From assembly GCA_016283985.1 (NCBI GenBank), contig JAEENZ010000057.1:1-6662 (forward strand): DNA of 6,662 nt, in the 5' to 3' direction. The notes beneath the pieces are model-generated. The model did not search any database. It saw only the letters and a program-made list of their open reading frames with translations, and was not told the DNA's origin. The stretch's first letter is position 1; every line of letters starts with the position of its first letter. Made by a program: the position numbers and the translations under genes. Of this stretch, positions 1,894 through 6,591 are shown piece after piece. The DNA is from Bacteroidales bacterium. GTDB taxonomy: Bacteria > Bacteroidota > Bacteroidia > Bacteroidales > UBA932.

Positions 1894-4539
1894 ATGAAAC
1901 CTGGCCTGAAGCATCTGATAACAGCGTGCTTGTTGTTTGCGTCCATCGTGTGCGGAGCGCAGACAACCAAGGTACGCGGCCGGGTAACTGACGAAAACGG
2001 CGAGGGGATCCCCTTCGTCGGCGTCTACTTCAAGGGCACTACCGTCGGCATCACCACCGACATGGAAGGCTACTACATCATCGAAACCCGCGATCCGAAA
2101 TGCGTTGTGCTGGCGGCCCAGCTGCTTGGCTACGACACGCGCATGTCGATGGTGAACTACGGCCAGTTCAACGAGATCAACTTCGTGCTTCCCCTGACCG
2201 ACAACCGGCTGACCGGTGCGAAGGTCCGGGCAGACAACAAGAAGGCCCGCGAACTTCTGGCCAACATCCAGCAGCACCGTTCCACCAACGATCCTGATGC
2301 CCATCAGGAGTATGTCTGCGAGGTTTACAACAAGATGGAACTGGACCTCACGCACCCGGCTGAACAGCTGGATGGCAAGAGGTTCAAGAAGGAATTCGGC
2401 TTCGTGTTCGACTATATCGACACCTCGGCCGTGTCCGGCGTGCCCTATCTGCCGGTGATGATTTCCGAGACCATAGCGGAGCGCAAGCACCGCAGCAATC
2501 CGGAATTCAACACCGAGACGGTGCTTGCGAACCGCATCTCCGGACTCAACCCGGACGGCAACAACATGCTCAGCCAGTTCACCGGTTCGCTGCACCTGAA
2601 GATCAACTTCTATCGCTCCTTCATCAACGCTTTCGACGTGCAGTTCCCGTCCCCGATATCGGAAACCGGCCTGCTCTACTACAACTACTATATCATTGAT
2701 ACGCTGCATGTCGACGGACGCAAGACCCTGCTGGTGCGATATCATCCCAAGCAGCTGGTCTCCACTCCGGCGTTCGACGGGGAGATGCGCATAGACTGCG
2801 AGGACTTCGCCCTGCGCAGCATCCACGCCAACATGAAGAACGCCACCAATGTAAACTGGCTCCGCGACCTGGTGCTGGATTCGGAGTACGAGCGCCAGGC
2901 GGATTCCACCTGGTTCTACAAGTCGGACAAGCTTTATGTAGACCTGTCCATGTCCCTGCGGGATTCTTCCAAGATGTTGTCTTTCATCGGCAAGAAAGAT
3001 ATGTCGTATTCCAAGGTCCGTTTCGAGCTGGACGAGAAACTGAATTCCGGCATGGGGATGGTGCGCGTGGATGAGGGTGCCAGCAAGAAGGATGATTCCT
3101 ACTGGGCTGAGGCCCGTCCGGAACCACTTTCGGCGAAGGAGCAGGAGATATACGACATGGTGGAGAAGATCCAGACCGTGCCCTTCTACAAGAGCCTCTA
3201 CGAGATAGTCTATACCGCCATCAACGGCTACTACGAGGTGGGGAAGATAGGTTTTGGCCCGTATTTCAAACTATTGAGTTTCAATGCGTTGGAGGGCCTC
3301 CGTCCGCAGTTTGGCATGCGCACGTCCAAAGATTTCAGCCTCACGGACCGCTTCACCGTCTACGGGGCCTATGGCACCAGGGACAAGACCCTGAAGGGAG
3401 GCGCCACCTGGGAGCATCTCTTCGGGCGCATCCCCGAACGGAAACTCACGCTTTCCGCAAAGTACGACGTCTACCAGATGGGCAGTGCGGCTGCCAATTC
3501 AATAGGCGAAGGCAACATCCTCGCCACCATCTTCGGAGGCAGCTACAACAACAAGCTCTGCATGATGTCGTCTTTCGCAGGCAGCTACGCGCACGAGTTC
3601 TCCACCCGGGTGAACGGCGAGATCGGCTTCAATTTCAAGCGCTTCTATCCAAACGAGGCTGGATGGCTGCCGGAGATCCGACAGGTATCCTTCTACGCCC
3701 CCGATTCCACCAAGATCCACAGCGTGGCGGCGAACGAGTTCTACGTCGCCTTGCGCTTTTCGAAGGATGAAACGGTGAACCGCGGGCTGTTCAAGAAGCA
3801 GTATGTCTACTCCGACTATCCTTCCGTAACATTTTCGCTGGCGGGCTCGCCCGAAGGTCTCCGCGAGGGGGATTACAGCTACCTGCGACCGGAATTCACC
3901 CTGCGCTGGAGCCCCCGCGTGCCCCCGTTCGGAACGTCGAAGATTTACATCAATGCCGGCAAGATCTTCGGGCACGTGCCCTATCCGCTGCTTCACTTCC
4001 ACGAGGGGAACAGCACCTATCTGCTCAACCGCTTCTCGTTCGCGTGCATGGAGTTCATGGAGTTTGCGTCGGACGAATGGCTGACCATCTTCTGGAACCA
4101 CTGCTTCAACGGATTCTTCTTCGGTAAGATGCCCGTGATCCGCAAGCTGGGATGGAGGGAGGAAGTGTCCCTGAGGGCGGCCTGGGGATCGCTATCCGAT
4201 GCCAACAACGGCAACCTGGCTAAGGTGAGCGTTACTGACATGCAGGCACCCATGCTCTTCCCGAACGGCACTTCGTCACTTGGAAAACTGCCGTATGTGG
4301 AATTTGGAGTCGGCGTGTCCAACATCCTGAAATTCATCCGTGTAGACTGCTACTGGCGCGGCACTTACCGCGACGCCCGCTATGTCGTGGTGGAAGACCC
4401 CACCGGCAAACCCGTCAAGCCTATCATCGACCCCGCCACCGGCCTCCCCATCGAAGACCCCACCCTGCGCCAGAAGGTCCTCGGCCGCATCAAGACCCCC
4501 AACTTTGCCGTCAAGATCGGCGCGGAGTTCAAGTTCTGA
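1894..4539 (+). CDS. DUF5686 / carboxypeptidase-like regulatory domain outer-membrane protein (881 aa)
   Basis: This is a large Bacteroidota cell-envelope protein of unknown function. A Sec signal peptide spans residues 1-22: positive MKPGLK, a hydrophobic stretch, and a likely cut after the CGA. Next comes a carboxypeptidase-like regulatory (beta-sandwich) domain at about 26-100, with VRGRVTDENGEGIPFVGV and GITTDMEGYYII. The remainder is the DUF5686 region. Its C-terminal half has many alternating aromatic/polar strands (for example FGMRTSKDFSLTDRFTVYGAYG) and ends in FAVKIGAEFKF with a terminal phenylalanine, as in outer-membrane beta-barrels. The full length fits the family. It starts 12 bp after ispE with no recognisable promoter between, so it is probably read from the suf-ispE transcript. 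Export or assembly of surface components is possible, but nothing in the sequence shows a substrate. Confidence 0.87.
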   Translation: MKPGLKHLITACLLFASIVCGAQTTKVRGRVTDENGEGIPFVGVYFKGTTVGITTDMEGYYIIETRDPKCVVLAAQLLGYDTRMSMVNYGQFNEINFVLPLTDNRLTGAKVRADNKKARELLANIQQHRSTNDPDAHQEYVCEVYNKMELDLTHPAEQLDGKRFKKEFGFVFDYIDTSAVSGVPYLPVMISETIAERKHRSNPEFNTETVLANRISGLNPDGNNMLSQFTGSLHLKINFYRSFINAFDVQFPSPISETGLLYYNYYIIDTLHVDGRKTLLVRYHPKQLVSTPAFDGEMRIDCEDFALRSIHANMKNATNVNWLRDLVLDSEYERQADSTWFYKSDKLYVDLSMSLRDSSKMLSFIGKKDMSYSKVRFELDEKLNSGMGMVRVDEGASKKDDSYWAEARPEPLSAKEQEIYDMVEKIQTVPFYKSLYEIVYTAINGYYEVGKIGFGPYFKLLSFNALEGLRPQFGMRTSKDFSLTDRFTVYGAYGTRDKTLKGGATWEHLFGRIPERKLTLSAKYDVYQMGSAAANSIGEGNILATIFGGSYNNKLCMMSSFAGSYAHEFSTRVNGEIGFNFKRFYPNEAGWLPEIRQVSFYAPDSTKIHSVAANEFYVALRFSKDETVNRGLFKKQYVYSDYPSVTFSLAGSPEGLREGDYSYLRPEFTLRWSPRVPPFGTSKIYINAGKIFGHVPYPLLHFHEGNSTYLLNRFSFACMEFMEFASDEWLTIFWNHCFNGFFFGKMPVIRKLGWREEVSLRAAWGSLSDANNGNLAKVSVTDMQAPMLFPNGTSSLGKLPYVEFGVGVSNILKFIRVDCYWRGTYRDARYVVVEDPTGKPVKPIIDPATGLPIEDPTLRQKVLGRIKTPNFAVKIGAEFKF

Positions 4540-4546
4540 ACGTGGA

Positions 4547-5128
4547 TTAAAGGATTTTTACAGATGTCAGGCCGTGCCGCTCTCCTGCGACATAACGAGA
4601 TTCGCTTGCAGATCCCGACCTGCGGAAACGGTCAAGATACAAAGGGCGACCTGGTTGAATCTGAAGACATTCGAAACTATCTCCTGGTTGCAGGCTGGAG
4701 TTTAAGGATTCTTCCACCACAAACCGATTGCAACCGATATAGGAAACCGTCACAAGCCTGTCTGGAAACCAACCAAGTTGAAGCCTGGAGCCGGGAACAA
4801 GACGGGTTGAAAGCACGGACTCGCCCGAAAACTCTTCCGACTCAACGGGGGAAGATGCTTTGAGTGCAGCACAGTAACTCTTCCAGGAAGAAGCTCCGAC
4901 AAAGCGCGAAAGCACATCCAGTGTTCTTACGGAGACAAAGCTGGTGCTTCTGGTAGAGTAGCCCCAAAGACGCTCAAGAGTGCTCTCCGACAAATGTTCA
5001 CGATGAGATGCCTCAACCACATCCGCCAAAGCTATGAAGCTATTGTGCGTCTGGAGAGGCTGACCGAAAACTTCCTCTACGCGTGAGCGAAGAGCAGCAA
5101 TTTCCGGTATATTTACTGAAACTGACAT
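4547..5128 (-). CDS. Uncharacterised Bacteroidota protein with STLERLWGY-type N-terminal domain (193 aa)
   Basis: Function is unknown. Residues about 8-92 form a mostly helical domain containing LSESTLERLWGYS (47-59) and SVRTLDVLSRFVGASSWKSYC (66-86). I know this pattern from many Bacteroides-group hypothetical proteins, where it looks like a compact helix-turn-helix-like unit. After an acidic/serine linker (93-107), the C-terminal part (about 108-193) is beta-rich and has GDSFECLQIQPGRPLYLDRF and YVAGERHGLTSVKIL, also conserved in that family from memory. I chose the ATG at 5128. A longer form from 5161 would place its first 11 codons over this gene's own -7 promoter box and add residues unlike the family. 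The gene is divergent from the kinase, with 47 bp between start codons, and convergent with the DUF5686 gene, with 7 bp between stops. DNA binding and regulation of the shared promoter are plausible but not shown. Confidence 0.8.
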   Translation of the reverse strand: MSVSVNIPEIAALRSRVEEVFGQPLQTHNSFIALADVVEASHREHLSESTLERLWGYSTRSTSFVSVRTLDVLSRFVGASSWKSYCAALKASSPVESEEFSGESVLSTRLVPGSRLQLGWFPDRLVTVSYIGCNRFVVEESLNSSLQPGDSFECLQIQPGRPLYLDRFRRSGSASESRYVAGERHGLTSVKIL

Positions 5129-5158
5129 TGTATGACAAAGGTAAAAACAATATCTTTG
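5127..5158 (+). promoter_or_regulatory. Bacteroidota-type promoter for the kinase gene
   Basis: ATTG (5127-5130) lies 20 bases before TATCTTTG (5151-5158, exact TAnnTTTG). Centre spacing is again 26. Transcription should begin near 5161-5162, about 14 bases before the kinase ATG at 5176. The -33 box overlaps the start codon of the opposite gene, and the -7 box lies upstream of the opposite -7 box on the other strand, so the two promoters occupy the same DNA. Confidence 0.77.
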
Positions 5159-5167
5159 CATTGCAAT
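5136..5167 (-). promoter_or_regulatory. Bacteroidota-type promoter for the minus-strand gene
   Basis: Read on the minus strand, ATTG (5167-5164, -33 box) is followed after 20 bases by TACCTTTG (5143-5136, an exact TAnnTTTG -7 box). The centre-to-centre distance of 26 equals the Bacteroides consensus spacing. The predicted start of transcription is about 5132-5133, only 4-5 bases before the ATG at 5128, so the mRNA would be almost leaderless. Confidence 0.75.
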
Positions 5168-5175
5168 GTCAATTT

Positions 5176-6252
5176 ATGTCACAATTGTTGAGTGAGACAC
5201 TTAGGGAGATAACTCCCTCCCTTTCTGATGGCCAATACTCTATTTTGGATGCCATCAGGGATGGTCGCATTTATCTGGCCGAAAAGGCCGGAAAACGATT
5301 CGTCCTAAAAACAGCCGATAGTGCCAAAGGGCTGGAAATGCTCAAGCGCGAGTACGAACTCTCCATCGGCTTGTCTCATCCTTCTCTGGCATATGTTTTC
5401 ACCTGGGAGGAGAACTCCCCGGTAGGGCCTTCCATCGTTCAGGAGTATATTGACGGGCGCACATTGGATTCTTGGCTGGCCGAAAGACCAAGCGCGAAAG
5501 AGCGCAAACGCATAATGGGCGAGCTGTTGTCCGTCGCGGCATATCTGCACCGTAAAGGCATTGTCCATAACGACTTGACCCCTTCGAACATACTTGTCAC
5601 AAGGACCGATGATTCCCTCAAAATCATAGACCTTGGCTTTGCCGATTCTGATGCATATTCCCAAAAGGCCAGAGGCGGCACCCGGGGTTACGCATCTCCT
5701 GAGTTGATTGCCGGGAAGGAGACTGATGCCCGTAGTGACATTTATTCCATCGGAAGGTTGATGAAGGATATCTTTCCCGGGCGTTTCCGTTGCATTTCAC
5801 ATCGTTGCCTGCGCGAGAATCCGGAGAATAGGTATCAATCGGTTCAAGACCTTCAGAAGGCGATTAAAAACCGAAAGATCCTGCCACGGATGGCCCTTTG
5901 CCTGGTCTTGGCCGCAATTGTTGCATTGCCCTATATAATTGATTACAAAGAGGAAGCCGGGGAAAAGGCCGCGATCAAAGATGCCAAAGCCAAGGTGGAG
6001 GCGGTCTACGAGCGGGCCGTTCCGGCTTTCCGGGAAGCAATCTTGGAGGCAAAGACGGTTCAGGAGGTCAATGATGCCTGGACGGTTTTCCTGGAAGATC
6101 AAAAACAAGTGAATTTCAATATCCCGGACGCCGCTCCGGAGGCTGTTCGCCCCGCAATACGCGACTACATCCTTCATAGAAACAACGAAATCCTTCCCGT
6201 TCTGGGCGAAGAGCTAAACTCCAGAATGCGCGAGCTCTCCGGAATAAAATGA
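5176..6252 (+). CDS. Membrane-anchored Hanks-type Ser/Thr protein kinase (358 aa)
   Basis: This is a eukaryotic-like kinase with a single membrane span. Kinase landmarks are FVLK with ATP-site lysine K45, a likely helix-C glutamate E59 or E61, the catalytic loop HNDLTPSN (131-138) with D133 and N138, metal-binding DLG (152-154), the activation-segment end GTRGYASPE (168-176), D188 in RSDIYSIG, and R219 in NPENRY. Two features are odd: the glycine-rich loop is degenerate (DAIRDGRIYLA), and HRD reads HND, so activation-loop phosphorylation may not be needed. Residues about 236-255 form one transmembrane helix preceded by KNRK, placing the kinase in the cytoplasm and the last ~100 helical, charged residues outside it, perhaps as a sensor. 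An in-frame GTG at 5083 is rejected because it lies inside the opposite gene and upstream of the promoter. The gene is less G+C-rich than the suf-ispE block. Substrate is unknown. Confidence 0.88.
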   Translation: MSQLLSETLREITPSLSDGQYSILDAIRDGRIYLAEKAGKRFVLKTADSAKGLEMLKREYELSIGLSHPSLAYVFTWEENSPVGPSIVQEYIDGRTLDSWLAERPSAKERKRIMGELLSVAAYLHRKGIVHNDLTPSNILVTRTDDSLKIIDLGFADSDAYSQKARGGTRGYASPELIAGKETDARSDIYSIGRLMKDIFPGRFRCISHRCLRENPENRYQSVQDLQKAIKNRKILPRMALCLVLAAIVALPYIIDYKEEAGEKAAIKDAKAKVEAVYERAVPAFREAILEAKTVQEVNDAWTVFLEDQKQVNFNIPDAAPEAVRPAIRDYILHRNNEILPVLGEELNSRMRELSGIK

Positions 6253-6265
6253 CATTAAAAGACTA

Positions 6266-6296
6266 CTTGCGTTGCAATAGCCGGTCATTATCTTTG
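6266..6296 (+). promoter_or_regulatory. Bacteroidota-type promoter downstream of the kinase gene
   Basis: CTTG (6266-6269) stands 19 bases before TATCTTTG (6289-6296), an exact TAnnTTTG box; centre spacing is 25. Transcription is predicted near 6300. The box and next base (TATCTTTGC) are identical to those of the kinase promoter. It would drive the structured RNA region and the gene at 6592. Confidence 0.66.
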
Positions 6297-6344: not shown

Positions 6345-6352
6345 TATATTTG
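6345..6352 (+). promoter_or_regulatory. Possible second -7 box (TATATTTG)
   Basis: This is an exact TAnnTTTG match, but no TTG is found at the proper -33 distance (only AGTG at about 6320-6323). If used, transcription would start near 6356, just after the 5' arm of the hairpin at 6348-6390, and remove that arm's 8-base core from the RNA. It may be a chance match in A+T-rich DNA. Confidence 0.3.
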
Positions 6353-6390
6353 TCTGTGAAGGCCAGCAGTGGCCTGAGACATAGACAAAT
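6348..6390 (+). other. Stem-loop: 11-bp outer stem plus inner tetraloop hairpin
   Basis: ATTTGTCTGTG (6348-6358) pairs with CATAGACAAAT (6380-6390) over 11 pairs, one of them G-U. Inside, after a small internal loop, GGCCA (6361-6365) pairs perfectly with TGGCC (6370-6374) around GCAG. No T-run follows, so it is not a classical terminator of the kinase gene. Its 3' arm is also the 5' closing strand of the larger structure that follows. Confidence 0.6.
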
Positions 6391-6566
6391 AGCGTTTGCT
6401 TTTTGCTCTGACCGGGTAGAAACGTAGGAAATTTCTTTAGCAGGTTCAGCAGCAAGTTGTAAACGCCCGCAACCAATATCCGCAAGGGTATTCGCGGGCG
6501 TGACTTGTACCTGCTTTGGTTTCCTACGACCACTACCGGACGAGTTACGCCCGCGTTATTTGTATG
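6380..6566 (+). ncRNA. Long bulged-hairpin RNA, about 187 nt: small RNA or structured leader
   Basis: The segment folds by hand into one rod. The stems, in order, are: 6380-6382 with 6564-6566; 6385-6394 with 6554-6563 (10 pairs, one G-U); CTC 6406-6408 with GAG 6542-6544; 6412-6419 with 6533-6539 (7 pairs, one bulged G); 6423-6431 with 6520-6528 (9); 6439-6445 with 6509-6515 (7); 6453-6457 with 6503-6507 (5); 6464-6470 with 6494-6500 (7, all G-C); and 6475-6481 with 6486-6492 (7, one G-U), closed by the GNRA loop GCAA. Unpaired bubbles are 6395-6405/6545-6553 and 6432-6438/6516-6519. No convincing ORF lies in it and a promoter lies upstream. The rod-with-bubble shape and size recall 6S RNA, but I cannot confirm a family. 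It ends 25 nt before the next ATG without a T-run, so a cis-acting leader is equally possible. Confidence 0.62.
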
Positions 6567-6591
6567 CCCTGAAATCAAAACAATAACCGAT

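What the first reader, a model, noticed from the sequence alone, without database searches (positions are those of the whole stretch)
5119..5175. Two face-to-face promoters built on one palindrome between divergent genes
Each strand carries TTG-N20-TAnnTTTG, and both are placed symmetrically about base 5147. Each -33 box lies just beyond the transcription start of the opposite promoter. Two RNA polymerases could hardly bind at once, so the transcription of the kinase and its divergent partner is probably mutually exclusive. This is a simple way to make a toggle.
Basis: partly seen in the sequence, partly recalled or inferred. Interest (0 to 1): 0.72.

Follow-up and report, generated by a model that had tools for sequence, protein, structure and literature searches.

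The report
Conserved two-way promoter with operator repeats
Two gene switches pointing in opposite directions share one short piece of DNA, and repeated landing sites for what is probably the neighbouring gene's own control protein sit on that piece and again in front of the next operon, so it looks like the control centre of a small regulatory module rather than a bare toggle.

Summary
In detail: TTG-N20-TAnnTTTG lies on both strands, centred on 5147. In 17 loci (window and 16 genomes) both -7 boxes, their 7-bp gap and the plus promoter are kept in 17, the minus promoter in 16; 37 of 53 columns of 5129-5181 are invariant, against 0 of 13 fourfold coding sites. Facing -7 boxes are common in 22 genomes searched (231 places, reversed control 15), so the overlap alone is ordinary. 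The spacing is specific and tracks the divergent gene's protein, which has a predicted lambda-repressor-like HTH domain. Best reading: an autoregulatory switch in which this protein activates itself and the cargo operon and shuts off the divergent Ser/Thr kinase; binding and signs are inferred. Polymerase exclusion is plausible; a toggle is not shown. A structured RNA without an Rfam match often precedes cargo genes.

The parts
4547..5128 (-). Divergent gene P0002: 193 aa, N-terminal lambda-repressor-like HTH (predicted) plus C-terminal small beta barrel; start codon 5128-5126 lies 7 nt after its -7 box (predicted leader about 3 nt)
   Evidence: 371 homologues at E<=0.001, most of the 120 listed being 193 or 194 aa, which fits this start; models and fold comparison; no Pfam or NCBIfam match; ATG 7 nt after the box in 24 of 33 loci
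5176..6252 (+). Ser/Thr protein kinase, 358 aa; hydrophobic segment near residue 250 (seen by eye) and a C-terminal tail
   Evidence: Pfam PF00069 E 1.5e-26; 1476 homologues at E<=0.001, 120 listed
5128..5158 (+). Kinase promoter: -33 TTG 5128-5130, N20, -7 TATCTTTG 5151-5158; predicted start 5163
   Evidence: kept in 17 of 17 near loci
5136..5166 (-). P0002 promoter: -33 TTG 5166-5164, N20, -7 TACCTTTG 5143-5136; predicted start 5131
   Evidence: complete in 16 of 17 near loci, -7 box in 17 of 17
5119..5175 (.). Imperfect palindrome centred on 5147, arms 5119-5143 and 5151-5175
   Evidence: shuffles; position-by-position conservation
5124..5137 (+). Site L: GACATTGTATGACA (GACA-N6-GACA); -39 to -26 of the kinase promoter, -6 to +8 of the P0002 promoter
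   Evidence: present in 18 of 33 divergent loci (17 near loci and L055). Stricter pattern GACATTGNNNGACAAAG: one match in each of 14 of 14 genomes, all at this locus; control 1 match
5167..5180 (-). Site R: GACATAAATTGACA on the minus strand (GACA-N6-GACA-N23-TAnnTTTG); -49 to -36 of the P0002 promoter, +5 to +18 of the kinase
   Evidence: 23-bp spacing to the -7 box in 16 of 16 near-clade loci including the window (the other five, L080 and L084-L087, have no reverse site there)
6251..6264 (+). Site C: GACATTAAAAGACT directly behind the kinase; -50 to -37 of the cargo promoter
   Evidence: GAC[AT]-N6-GAC[AT]-N24-TAnnTTTG in 21 of 21 loci; genome-wide check
6267..6296 (+). Cargo promoter P1: TTG 6267-6269, N19, TATCTTTG 6289-6296; predicted start 6301
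6345..6352 (+). Second -7 box (P2) just before the structured RNA
   Evidence: a TAnnTTTG at this place in the 14 loci printed
6351..6584 (+). Conserved structured RNA between the cargo promoters and the cargo start codon (ATG 6592)
   Evidence: no Rfam match at gathering score and only weak unrelated matches, best E 1.7, below gathering

Best explanation
The segment is the shared control region of a two-gene signalling module: a predicted HTH DNA-binding protein (P0002, minus strand) and a Ser/Thr kinase, probably membrane-bound (plus strand). Two complete sigma-A-type promoters of the Bacteroidota kind are interleaved, so polymerase can use only one at a time (inferred from geometry). P0002, or a complex containing it, binds direct repeats GACA-N6-GACA, one helical turn apart. 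Site R sits just upstream of the -33 box of the P0002 promoter, where an activator would stand, and at the same time over the first transcribed bases of the kinase. Site L covers the -33 and spacer of the kinase promoter and the start point of P0002. Site C repeats the activator position in front of the next operon. Proposed working: low P0002 fills R and C, raises P0002 and the cargo operon and blocks the kinase; more P0002 also fills L and shuts the region down; the kinase sets the activity of P0002, perhaps by phosphorylation. Shown by sequence comparison: promoter boxes, repeats, spacing, conservation, linkage. Inferred: that they are used, the identity of the binding protein, the signs of regulation and the kinase's role.
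Confidence: 0.6

Rival explanations
1. A bare toggle: polymerase exclusion between two interleaved promoters makes transcription of kinase and partner mutually exclusive, without a dedicated regulator.
For: Overlap of both promoters and its conservation.
Against: In E. coli basal competition was too low at all five bidirectional promoters tested (PMC12825309). Facing -7 boxes are common in the 22 genomes searched. It does not explain the invariant GACA pairs, their N6 spacing or the same site at the cargo promoter. L055 drops the kinase -7 box but keeps the rest.
Confidence: 0.1
2. The two promoters simply co-express a divergent gene pair from a compact region, an ordinary bidirectional control region; the symmetry only reflects that each side needs the same boxes.
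For: 231 facing -7 box pairs in 22 genomes against 15 control matches; 12 of 20 checked lie between divergent ORFs, against 1 of 98 control positions. The variable positions of the palindrome do not covary.
Against: The strict double TTG-N20 arrangement with a 7-bp gap occurs once per genome in 15 of 22 genomes, at this locus, with no control match; the conserved GACA elements lie partly outside the core boxes.
Confidence: 0.2
3. Another regulator, for example an OmpR/PhoB-type response regulator, binds the direct repeats; P0002 does something else.
For: Direct repeats of TGTCA one turn apart resemble PhoB sites (recalled, pitch 11 there). No direct evidence links P0002 to the sites.
Against: The repeat tracks the P0002 family and the operator-promoter pattern occurs about once per genome, not as a broad regulon; pitch is 10 here.
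Confidence: 0.15

Closest known systems
RcoLS20 switch of conjugative plasmid pLS20 (PMC4207663; abstract and passages read)
   Same: Overlapping divergent promoters; HTH regulator encoded on one side; repeated motifs over and beside the core promoters; proposed here as there: activation of its own promoter with repression of the divergent one
   Different: Bacillus plasmid, conjugation genes, DNA looping over 75 bp and a peptide signal; here Bacteroidota promoters, a Ser/Thr kinase partner and a second site at a cargo operon; regulation not shown here
Phage lambda OR with PRM and PR (recalled; compared with pLS20 in passages of PMC4207663)
   Same: HTH regulator, divergent promoters, one site that can activate one promoter while blocking the other
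   Different: Lambda promoters do not interleave and operators are inverted repeats (recalled); here direct GACA repeats
Restriction-modification controller protein C.Esp1396I (PMC4041747; passages read, mostly of the introduction)
   Different: C protein sites are inverted repeats and control restriction-modification genes; none were found among the proteins of the window given to Pfam
Bidirectional promoters of E. coli and Salmonella (PMC12825309: abstract, passages, Discussion; PMC10268837: abstract and passages)
   Same: Symmetric DNA, divergent transcription, steric exclusion of polymerases
   Different: There one shared -10 element with starts 7-25 bp apart (18 most often); here two separate -7 boxes and predicted starts 32 bp apart

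Membership tests
Bacteroidota sigma-A (sigma-ABfr) promoter | TAnnTTTG at -7 | tested here: met
   Both strands; 17 of 17 near loci; consensus from PMC7366714 and PMC9723704 passages
Bacteroidota sigma-A (sigma-ABfr) promoter | TTTG-like element near -33 | tested here: met
   TTG at N20, preceded by A, so ATTG rather than TTTG; minus side lost in L018
Bacteroidota sigma-A (sigma-ABfr) promoter | Mapped transcription start 5 nt after the box | not testable with these tools
   No RNA data
Bidirectional promoter (shared -10, starts 7-25 bp apart) | One shared symmetric -10 element and starts 7-25 bp apart | tested here: not met
   Two separate -7 boxes; predicted, not mapped, starts 5163 and 5131, 32 bp apart; definition from PMC10268837 passages
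Genetic toggle switch | Two mutually repressing outputs with bistability | not testable with these tools
   Only physical overlap is shown
RcoLS20/lambda-type autoregulatory divergent switch | HTH regulator encoded on one side of divergent promoters | tested here: inconclusive
RcoLS20/lambda-type autoregulatory divergent switch | Promoters overlap and repeated motifs lie over and beside them | tested here: met
   Sites L and R
RcoLS20/lambda-type autoregulatory divergent switch | Regulator binds, activates its own promoter and represses the other | not testable with these tools
   Needs binding and reporter assays
R-M controller (C) protein | Small single-domain protein linked to restriction and methyltransferase genes | tested here: not met
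   193 aa with a second beta domain; neighbours in the window are a kinase and a DUF5686 protein
PhoB/OmpR direct-repeat operator | Direct repeats with 11-bp pitch (recalled) | tested here: inconclusive
   Pitch is 10 bp; the binding protein is unknown
Hanks-type Ser/Thr kinase | Protein kinase domain above the curated cut-off | tested here: met
   PF00069 93.8 bits against cut-off 31.7

The most novel reading that the evidence does not exclude
This is the control centre of an undescribed Bacteroidales signalling module. A membrane Ser/Thr kinase and a new HTH family, the P0002 family, share an interleaved promoter pair; the HTH protein, switched by the kinase, reads GACA-N6-GACA direct repeats and drives both itself and an exchangeable cargo operon, usually headed by a structured RNA family that is not in Rfam.
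Probability: 0.45. Interest if true: 0.72.

Novelty: new variant of a known kind. Interest (0 to 1): 0.55.

Why it matters
Bacterial Ser/Thr kinases are common, but few have a known transcription factor with known sites (recalled). Here the candidate factor, its operator, its own promoter and one target promoter are all predicted to the base and conserved across many Bacteroidales genomes, so kinase-to-gene signalling in this group becomes directly testable. It also gives a concrete picture of how divergent promoters are packed there: two facing -7 boxes, mostly 4-5 bp apart (hand count of part), unlike the shared -10 element of E. coli.

Tried and rejected
Own genome of the window: none is held. 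Plasmid records: no match to 5050-5250. Palindrome as RNA hairpin: rejected by reasoning, since both predicted transcripts start inside it. Covariation of the palindrome arms: none seen; variable positions change without their mirror partner (positions 12-16 from the centre), so the symmetry is that of the boxes. PDB sequence relatives of P0002: none at E<=1. PADLOC: P0002 and four of the five cargo proteins given had no match; the fifth (from L081) hit PDC-S48 at 1.2e-08 and BnzA at 5.4e-04; the kinase hits PD-T4-6, mad6 and other models, almost all over its kinase domain, not taken as evidence of defence. Literature: searches listed nothing on a Bacteroidales kinase-HTH pair of this kind or on bidirectional promoters in Bacteroides (no paper at all); two searches listed 10 of 14 and 8 of 13 papers; only the open PMC part was searchable, and these listings were read only as titles and abstract starts (PMC4207663, listed, was then read in passages). 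For the structured RNA only (10 of 221 papers listed) and Rfam were tried. Foldseek on both models gave no match at E<=0.001. ARAGORN found no tRNA or tmRNA.

Rows dropped before counting: L011 and L012, duplicates of L001 and L002. The 33 divergent loci come from the loci fetched (for the best 30 of all matches). Near clade means P0002 identity of 55% or more and kinase start offset 48 or 51 (17 of 33). The pattern GAC[AT] at the cargo site was widened after seeing the window's GACT. Genomes (14; 22) were picked because they hold a P0002 relative. The gap counts for one search are a hand count of the 75 rows listed for 7 of 22 genomes; of 25 places listed for three of these genomes 20 were fetched, leaving out three at this locus and two near contig ends. 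Model A1 used P0002 and 59 of the 120 listed homologues; A2 used 48 of the 55 N-terminal references; the RNA alignment A3 used 11 loci. L060 and L067 are partial P0002 matches, counted but not among the 33; L047 and L055 lie near contig ends.

Full report
The observation. Reading 5119-5175 directly, the plus strand carries TTG 5128-5130, 20 bases, TATCTTTG 5151-5158; the minus strand carries TTG 5166-5164, 20 bases, TACCTTTG 5143-5136; both are symmetric about 5147. They are the only TTG-N20-TAnnTTTG matches in the 6662-base window. The inverted repeat has arms 5119-5143 and 5151-5175, 76% complementary. Of 20,000 dinucleotide shuffles of 5100-5200, one reached the same symmetry, 100 held any such promoter and none had two in this register. 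The box TAnnTTTG is the -7 element of the main Bacteroidota sigma factor (passages of PMC7366714, and PMC9723704; the latter places it at -12 to -5), which gives predicted starts at 5163 and 5131. The promoters are divergent and interleaved rather than face-to-face.

The genes. Plus: a 358-aa Ser/Thr kinase, PF00069 E 1.5e-26. Minus: P0002, 193 aa, no Pfam or NCBIfam match, but 371 homologues at E<=0.001, most of the 120 listed being 193 or 194 aa, which fits a start at 5128. Its start codon lies 7 nt after its own -7 box, a leader of about 3 nt; the same 7 nt occur in 24 of 33 loci. Short leaders are unusual in this phylum: about 3.7% under 10 nt in B. thetaiotaomicron, 5.5% leaderless in F. 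psychrophilum.

Conservation. Searches with P0002 found it in 69 of 299 genomes of one family at E<=1e-3, in 2 of 26 genomes of one genus at E<=1e-40, and in 18 of 200 (E<=1e-40) and 21 of 400 (E<=1e-55) genomes of another. Of the loci fetched, 33 including the window have the kinase divergent within 300 nt. In the 17 near ones (window and 16 genomes) the start codons are 48 or 51 nt apart; both -7 boxes and their 7-bp gap are present in 17 of 17, the full plus promoter in 17 of 17 and the full minus promoter in 16 of 17 (L018 lacks TTG). Outside that clade, 10 of 16 keep facing -7 boxes with gaps of 5-12 bp, while 6 do not (L019, L021, L022, L042, L053, L055). P0002 proteins of the near clade are 57-84% identical pairwise; 37 of 53 positions of 5129-5181 (32 of 47 strictly between the genes) are invariant against 0 of 13 fourfold sites in the same gene, Fisher p 3e-6 for the 53.

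How unusual is the geometry? The strict pattern (both TTG-N20 promoters, 7-bp gap) is found once per genome in 15 of 22 genomes, at this locus, with no control match. The looser class of facing -7 boxes 4-10 bp apart is common: 231 places in 22 genomes against 15 for the reversed control. In a hand count of the 75 rows listed for 7 genomes, gaps of 4 (27) and 5 (31) dominate; gap 7 has 8, four of them at this locus. Of 20 such places fetched from 3 genomes (none at this locus), 12 lie between divergent ORFs, against 1 of 98 control positions. So interleaved divergent promoters are a normal device here, and the overlap by itself is not a special toggle.

The second layer. The near clade shares more than promoter boxes: TGACA at 5123 and 5133, and TGTC at 5167 and 5177, each pair 10 bp apart. 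In L016, L018, L045, L047 and L050 the last TGTCA is kept although the base before it has changed and an ATG in the same frame follows three codons on; these five look closely related, so this is weak support for a role as DNA rather than as start codon. Generalised to GACA-N6-GACA, the repeat occurs within 156 nt of the P0002 start in 18 of 21 loci at 55% identity or more, 7 of 10 at 45-55%, and 2 of 27 below 45%; other spacings from N3 to N9 occur in at most one locus of any band. In single intergenic regions 0-8 of 1000 shuffles contain it. With a matrix built from the near sites, the best score in L020, L055, L057 and L058 (0 of 1000 shuffles), L061 (2), L021 (3), L059 (4) and L056 (13) is better than chance; in L022 (91), L053, L052, L002, L019, L042 and L027 (168-464) it is not, and L023 (14) lacks the GACA pair. 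In L020, L057 and L058 the core GACATAAAAAGACA stands on the other strand, about 53 nt from the P0002 start. This is what a protein-binding site does, not a promoter box or an RNA element.

A third site. A genome-wide search for GACANNAAANGACA gave 60 matches against 26 for the reversed control in 22 genomes; besides the intergenic site it showed a second match behind the kinase in many genomes. With 20 larger regions plus the window, GAC[AT]-N6-GAC[AT] followed by exactly 24 bases and TAnnTTTG is found downstream of the kinase in 21 of 21 loci; in the window it is 6251-6264 with TATCTTTG at 6289-6296. In L068, L075, L076 and L083 about 1-3 kb of other genes lies between kinase and site, and the site stays with the promoter. 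Genome-wide a stricter form of this site-plus-promoter pattern gives 20 matches in 18 of 22 genomes and no control match; misses are G412, G231, G354 and G416, and G366 has three. The P0002 promoter has the same layout with 23 bases in 16 of 16 near-clade loci. So P0002 and cargo promoters are built alike: a direct repeat at about -50 to -36, upstream of or over the -33 box, the usual place of an activator next to sigma (general knowledge).

Positions. Site R (5167-5180) is -49 to -36 for P0002 and +5 to +18 for the kinase; site L (5124-5137) is -39 to -26 for the kinase and -6 to +8 for P0002; site C (6251-6264) is -50 to -37 for the cargo. A protein on R could activate P0002 and block the kinase; on L it would block both. 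L055 is a natural variant: the kinase -7 box reads TTCCTTTG, a TATCTTTG lies 63 bp further on (without TTG at N17-N23), and the kinase starts about 133 nt from P0002, yet L and R are kept. Conversely L052 keeps both promoters but has no GACA pair between the genes, while L080 (same genome) has the cargo site.

Comparison with the known. The closest worked-out logic is RcoLS20 of pLS20: overlapping divergent promoters, an HTH regulator that activates its own weak promoter at low level, represses it at high level and represses the divergent promoter (PMC4207663 abstract and passages). C.Esp1396I uses one activating and one repressing site and a third at a start point (PMC4041747 passages). Bidirectional promoters of enterobacteria share one -10 element with starts 7-25 bp apart (PMC10268837 passages); here predicted starts are 32 bp apart. 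Work on them shows that exclusion matters only once one direction is activated (PMC12825309 abstract, passages and Discussion). The present case may work like these but cannot be filed as a member, since binding and regulation are untested.

The cargo. Genes behind site C vary: of nine proteins given to Pfam five matched (OmpA domain, ion channel, TerB, zinc ribbon, PD-(D/E)XK) and four did not; others look like lipoproteins by eye. In 14 of the 17 regions window and L068-L083 a full-length structured RNA lies behind site C, L070 has it cut by the contig end, and L072 and L081 have none in the fetched region; the model found none in the four distant regions L084-L087. Pair counts on 18 sequences: 97.9% standard pairs, 11 pairs changed on both sides against 2.9 in shuffles, and 34-46% paired when slid (the alignment was fitted to the structure). 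Rfam has no match at gathering score and only weak unrelated ones below it. It occurs in 21 of 200 genomes of one genus at E<=1e-5, in three checked cases without the module within about 1.5 kb.

Verdict. The best-supported reading is an autoregulatory, interleaved divergent promoter controlled by the neighbouring HTH protein through direct repeats shared with a cargo operon.

Noticed in passing
6345-6584 (+): Conserved structured RNA of about 235 nt with a -7 box at its 5' end, before variable cargo genes; no Rfam match at gathering score; covariation support; 21 of 200 genomes of one genus. In L094, L096 and L097 it occurs without the kinase, P0002 or operator within about 1.5 kb.
   Followed up: partly
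22 genomes: Facing -7 boxes (CAAAnnTA-N4..10-TAnnTTTG) are about 15 times as frequent as a reversed control, with gaps of 4-5 bp favoured in the 75 rows listed: perhaps a general divergent-promoter geometry of this group.
   Followed up: partly
5166-5195 (+): Mirror image of the P0002 start codon: ATG 5166 opens a short out-of-frame ORF that would overlap the kinase start and end at TGA 5193-5195; it could dampen kinase translation.
   Followed up: no
4547-5131 (-): P0002 is probably translated from a nearly leaderless mRNA (ATG 7 nt after TTTG in 24 of 33 loci).
   Followed up: partly
L068, L075, L076, L083 between kinase and site C: Other genes lie in the gap; by eye they look like HipB/HipA, a PD-(D/E)XK transposase-like protein, a nucleotidyltransferase/HEPN pair and a BRO-like protein (labels recalled, not from a call). 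The place may be an insertion hot spot.
   Followed up: no
G366 C17:2603-2648; G329 C31:98333-98378: Further copies of the operator-promoter pattern; the one in G329 lies near a second P0002 relative (L061).
   Followed up: no
1894-4539 (+): DUF5686/carboxypeptidase-regulatory-like domain protein next to the module.
   Followed up: no
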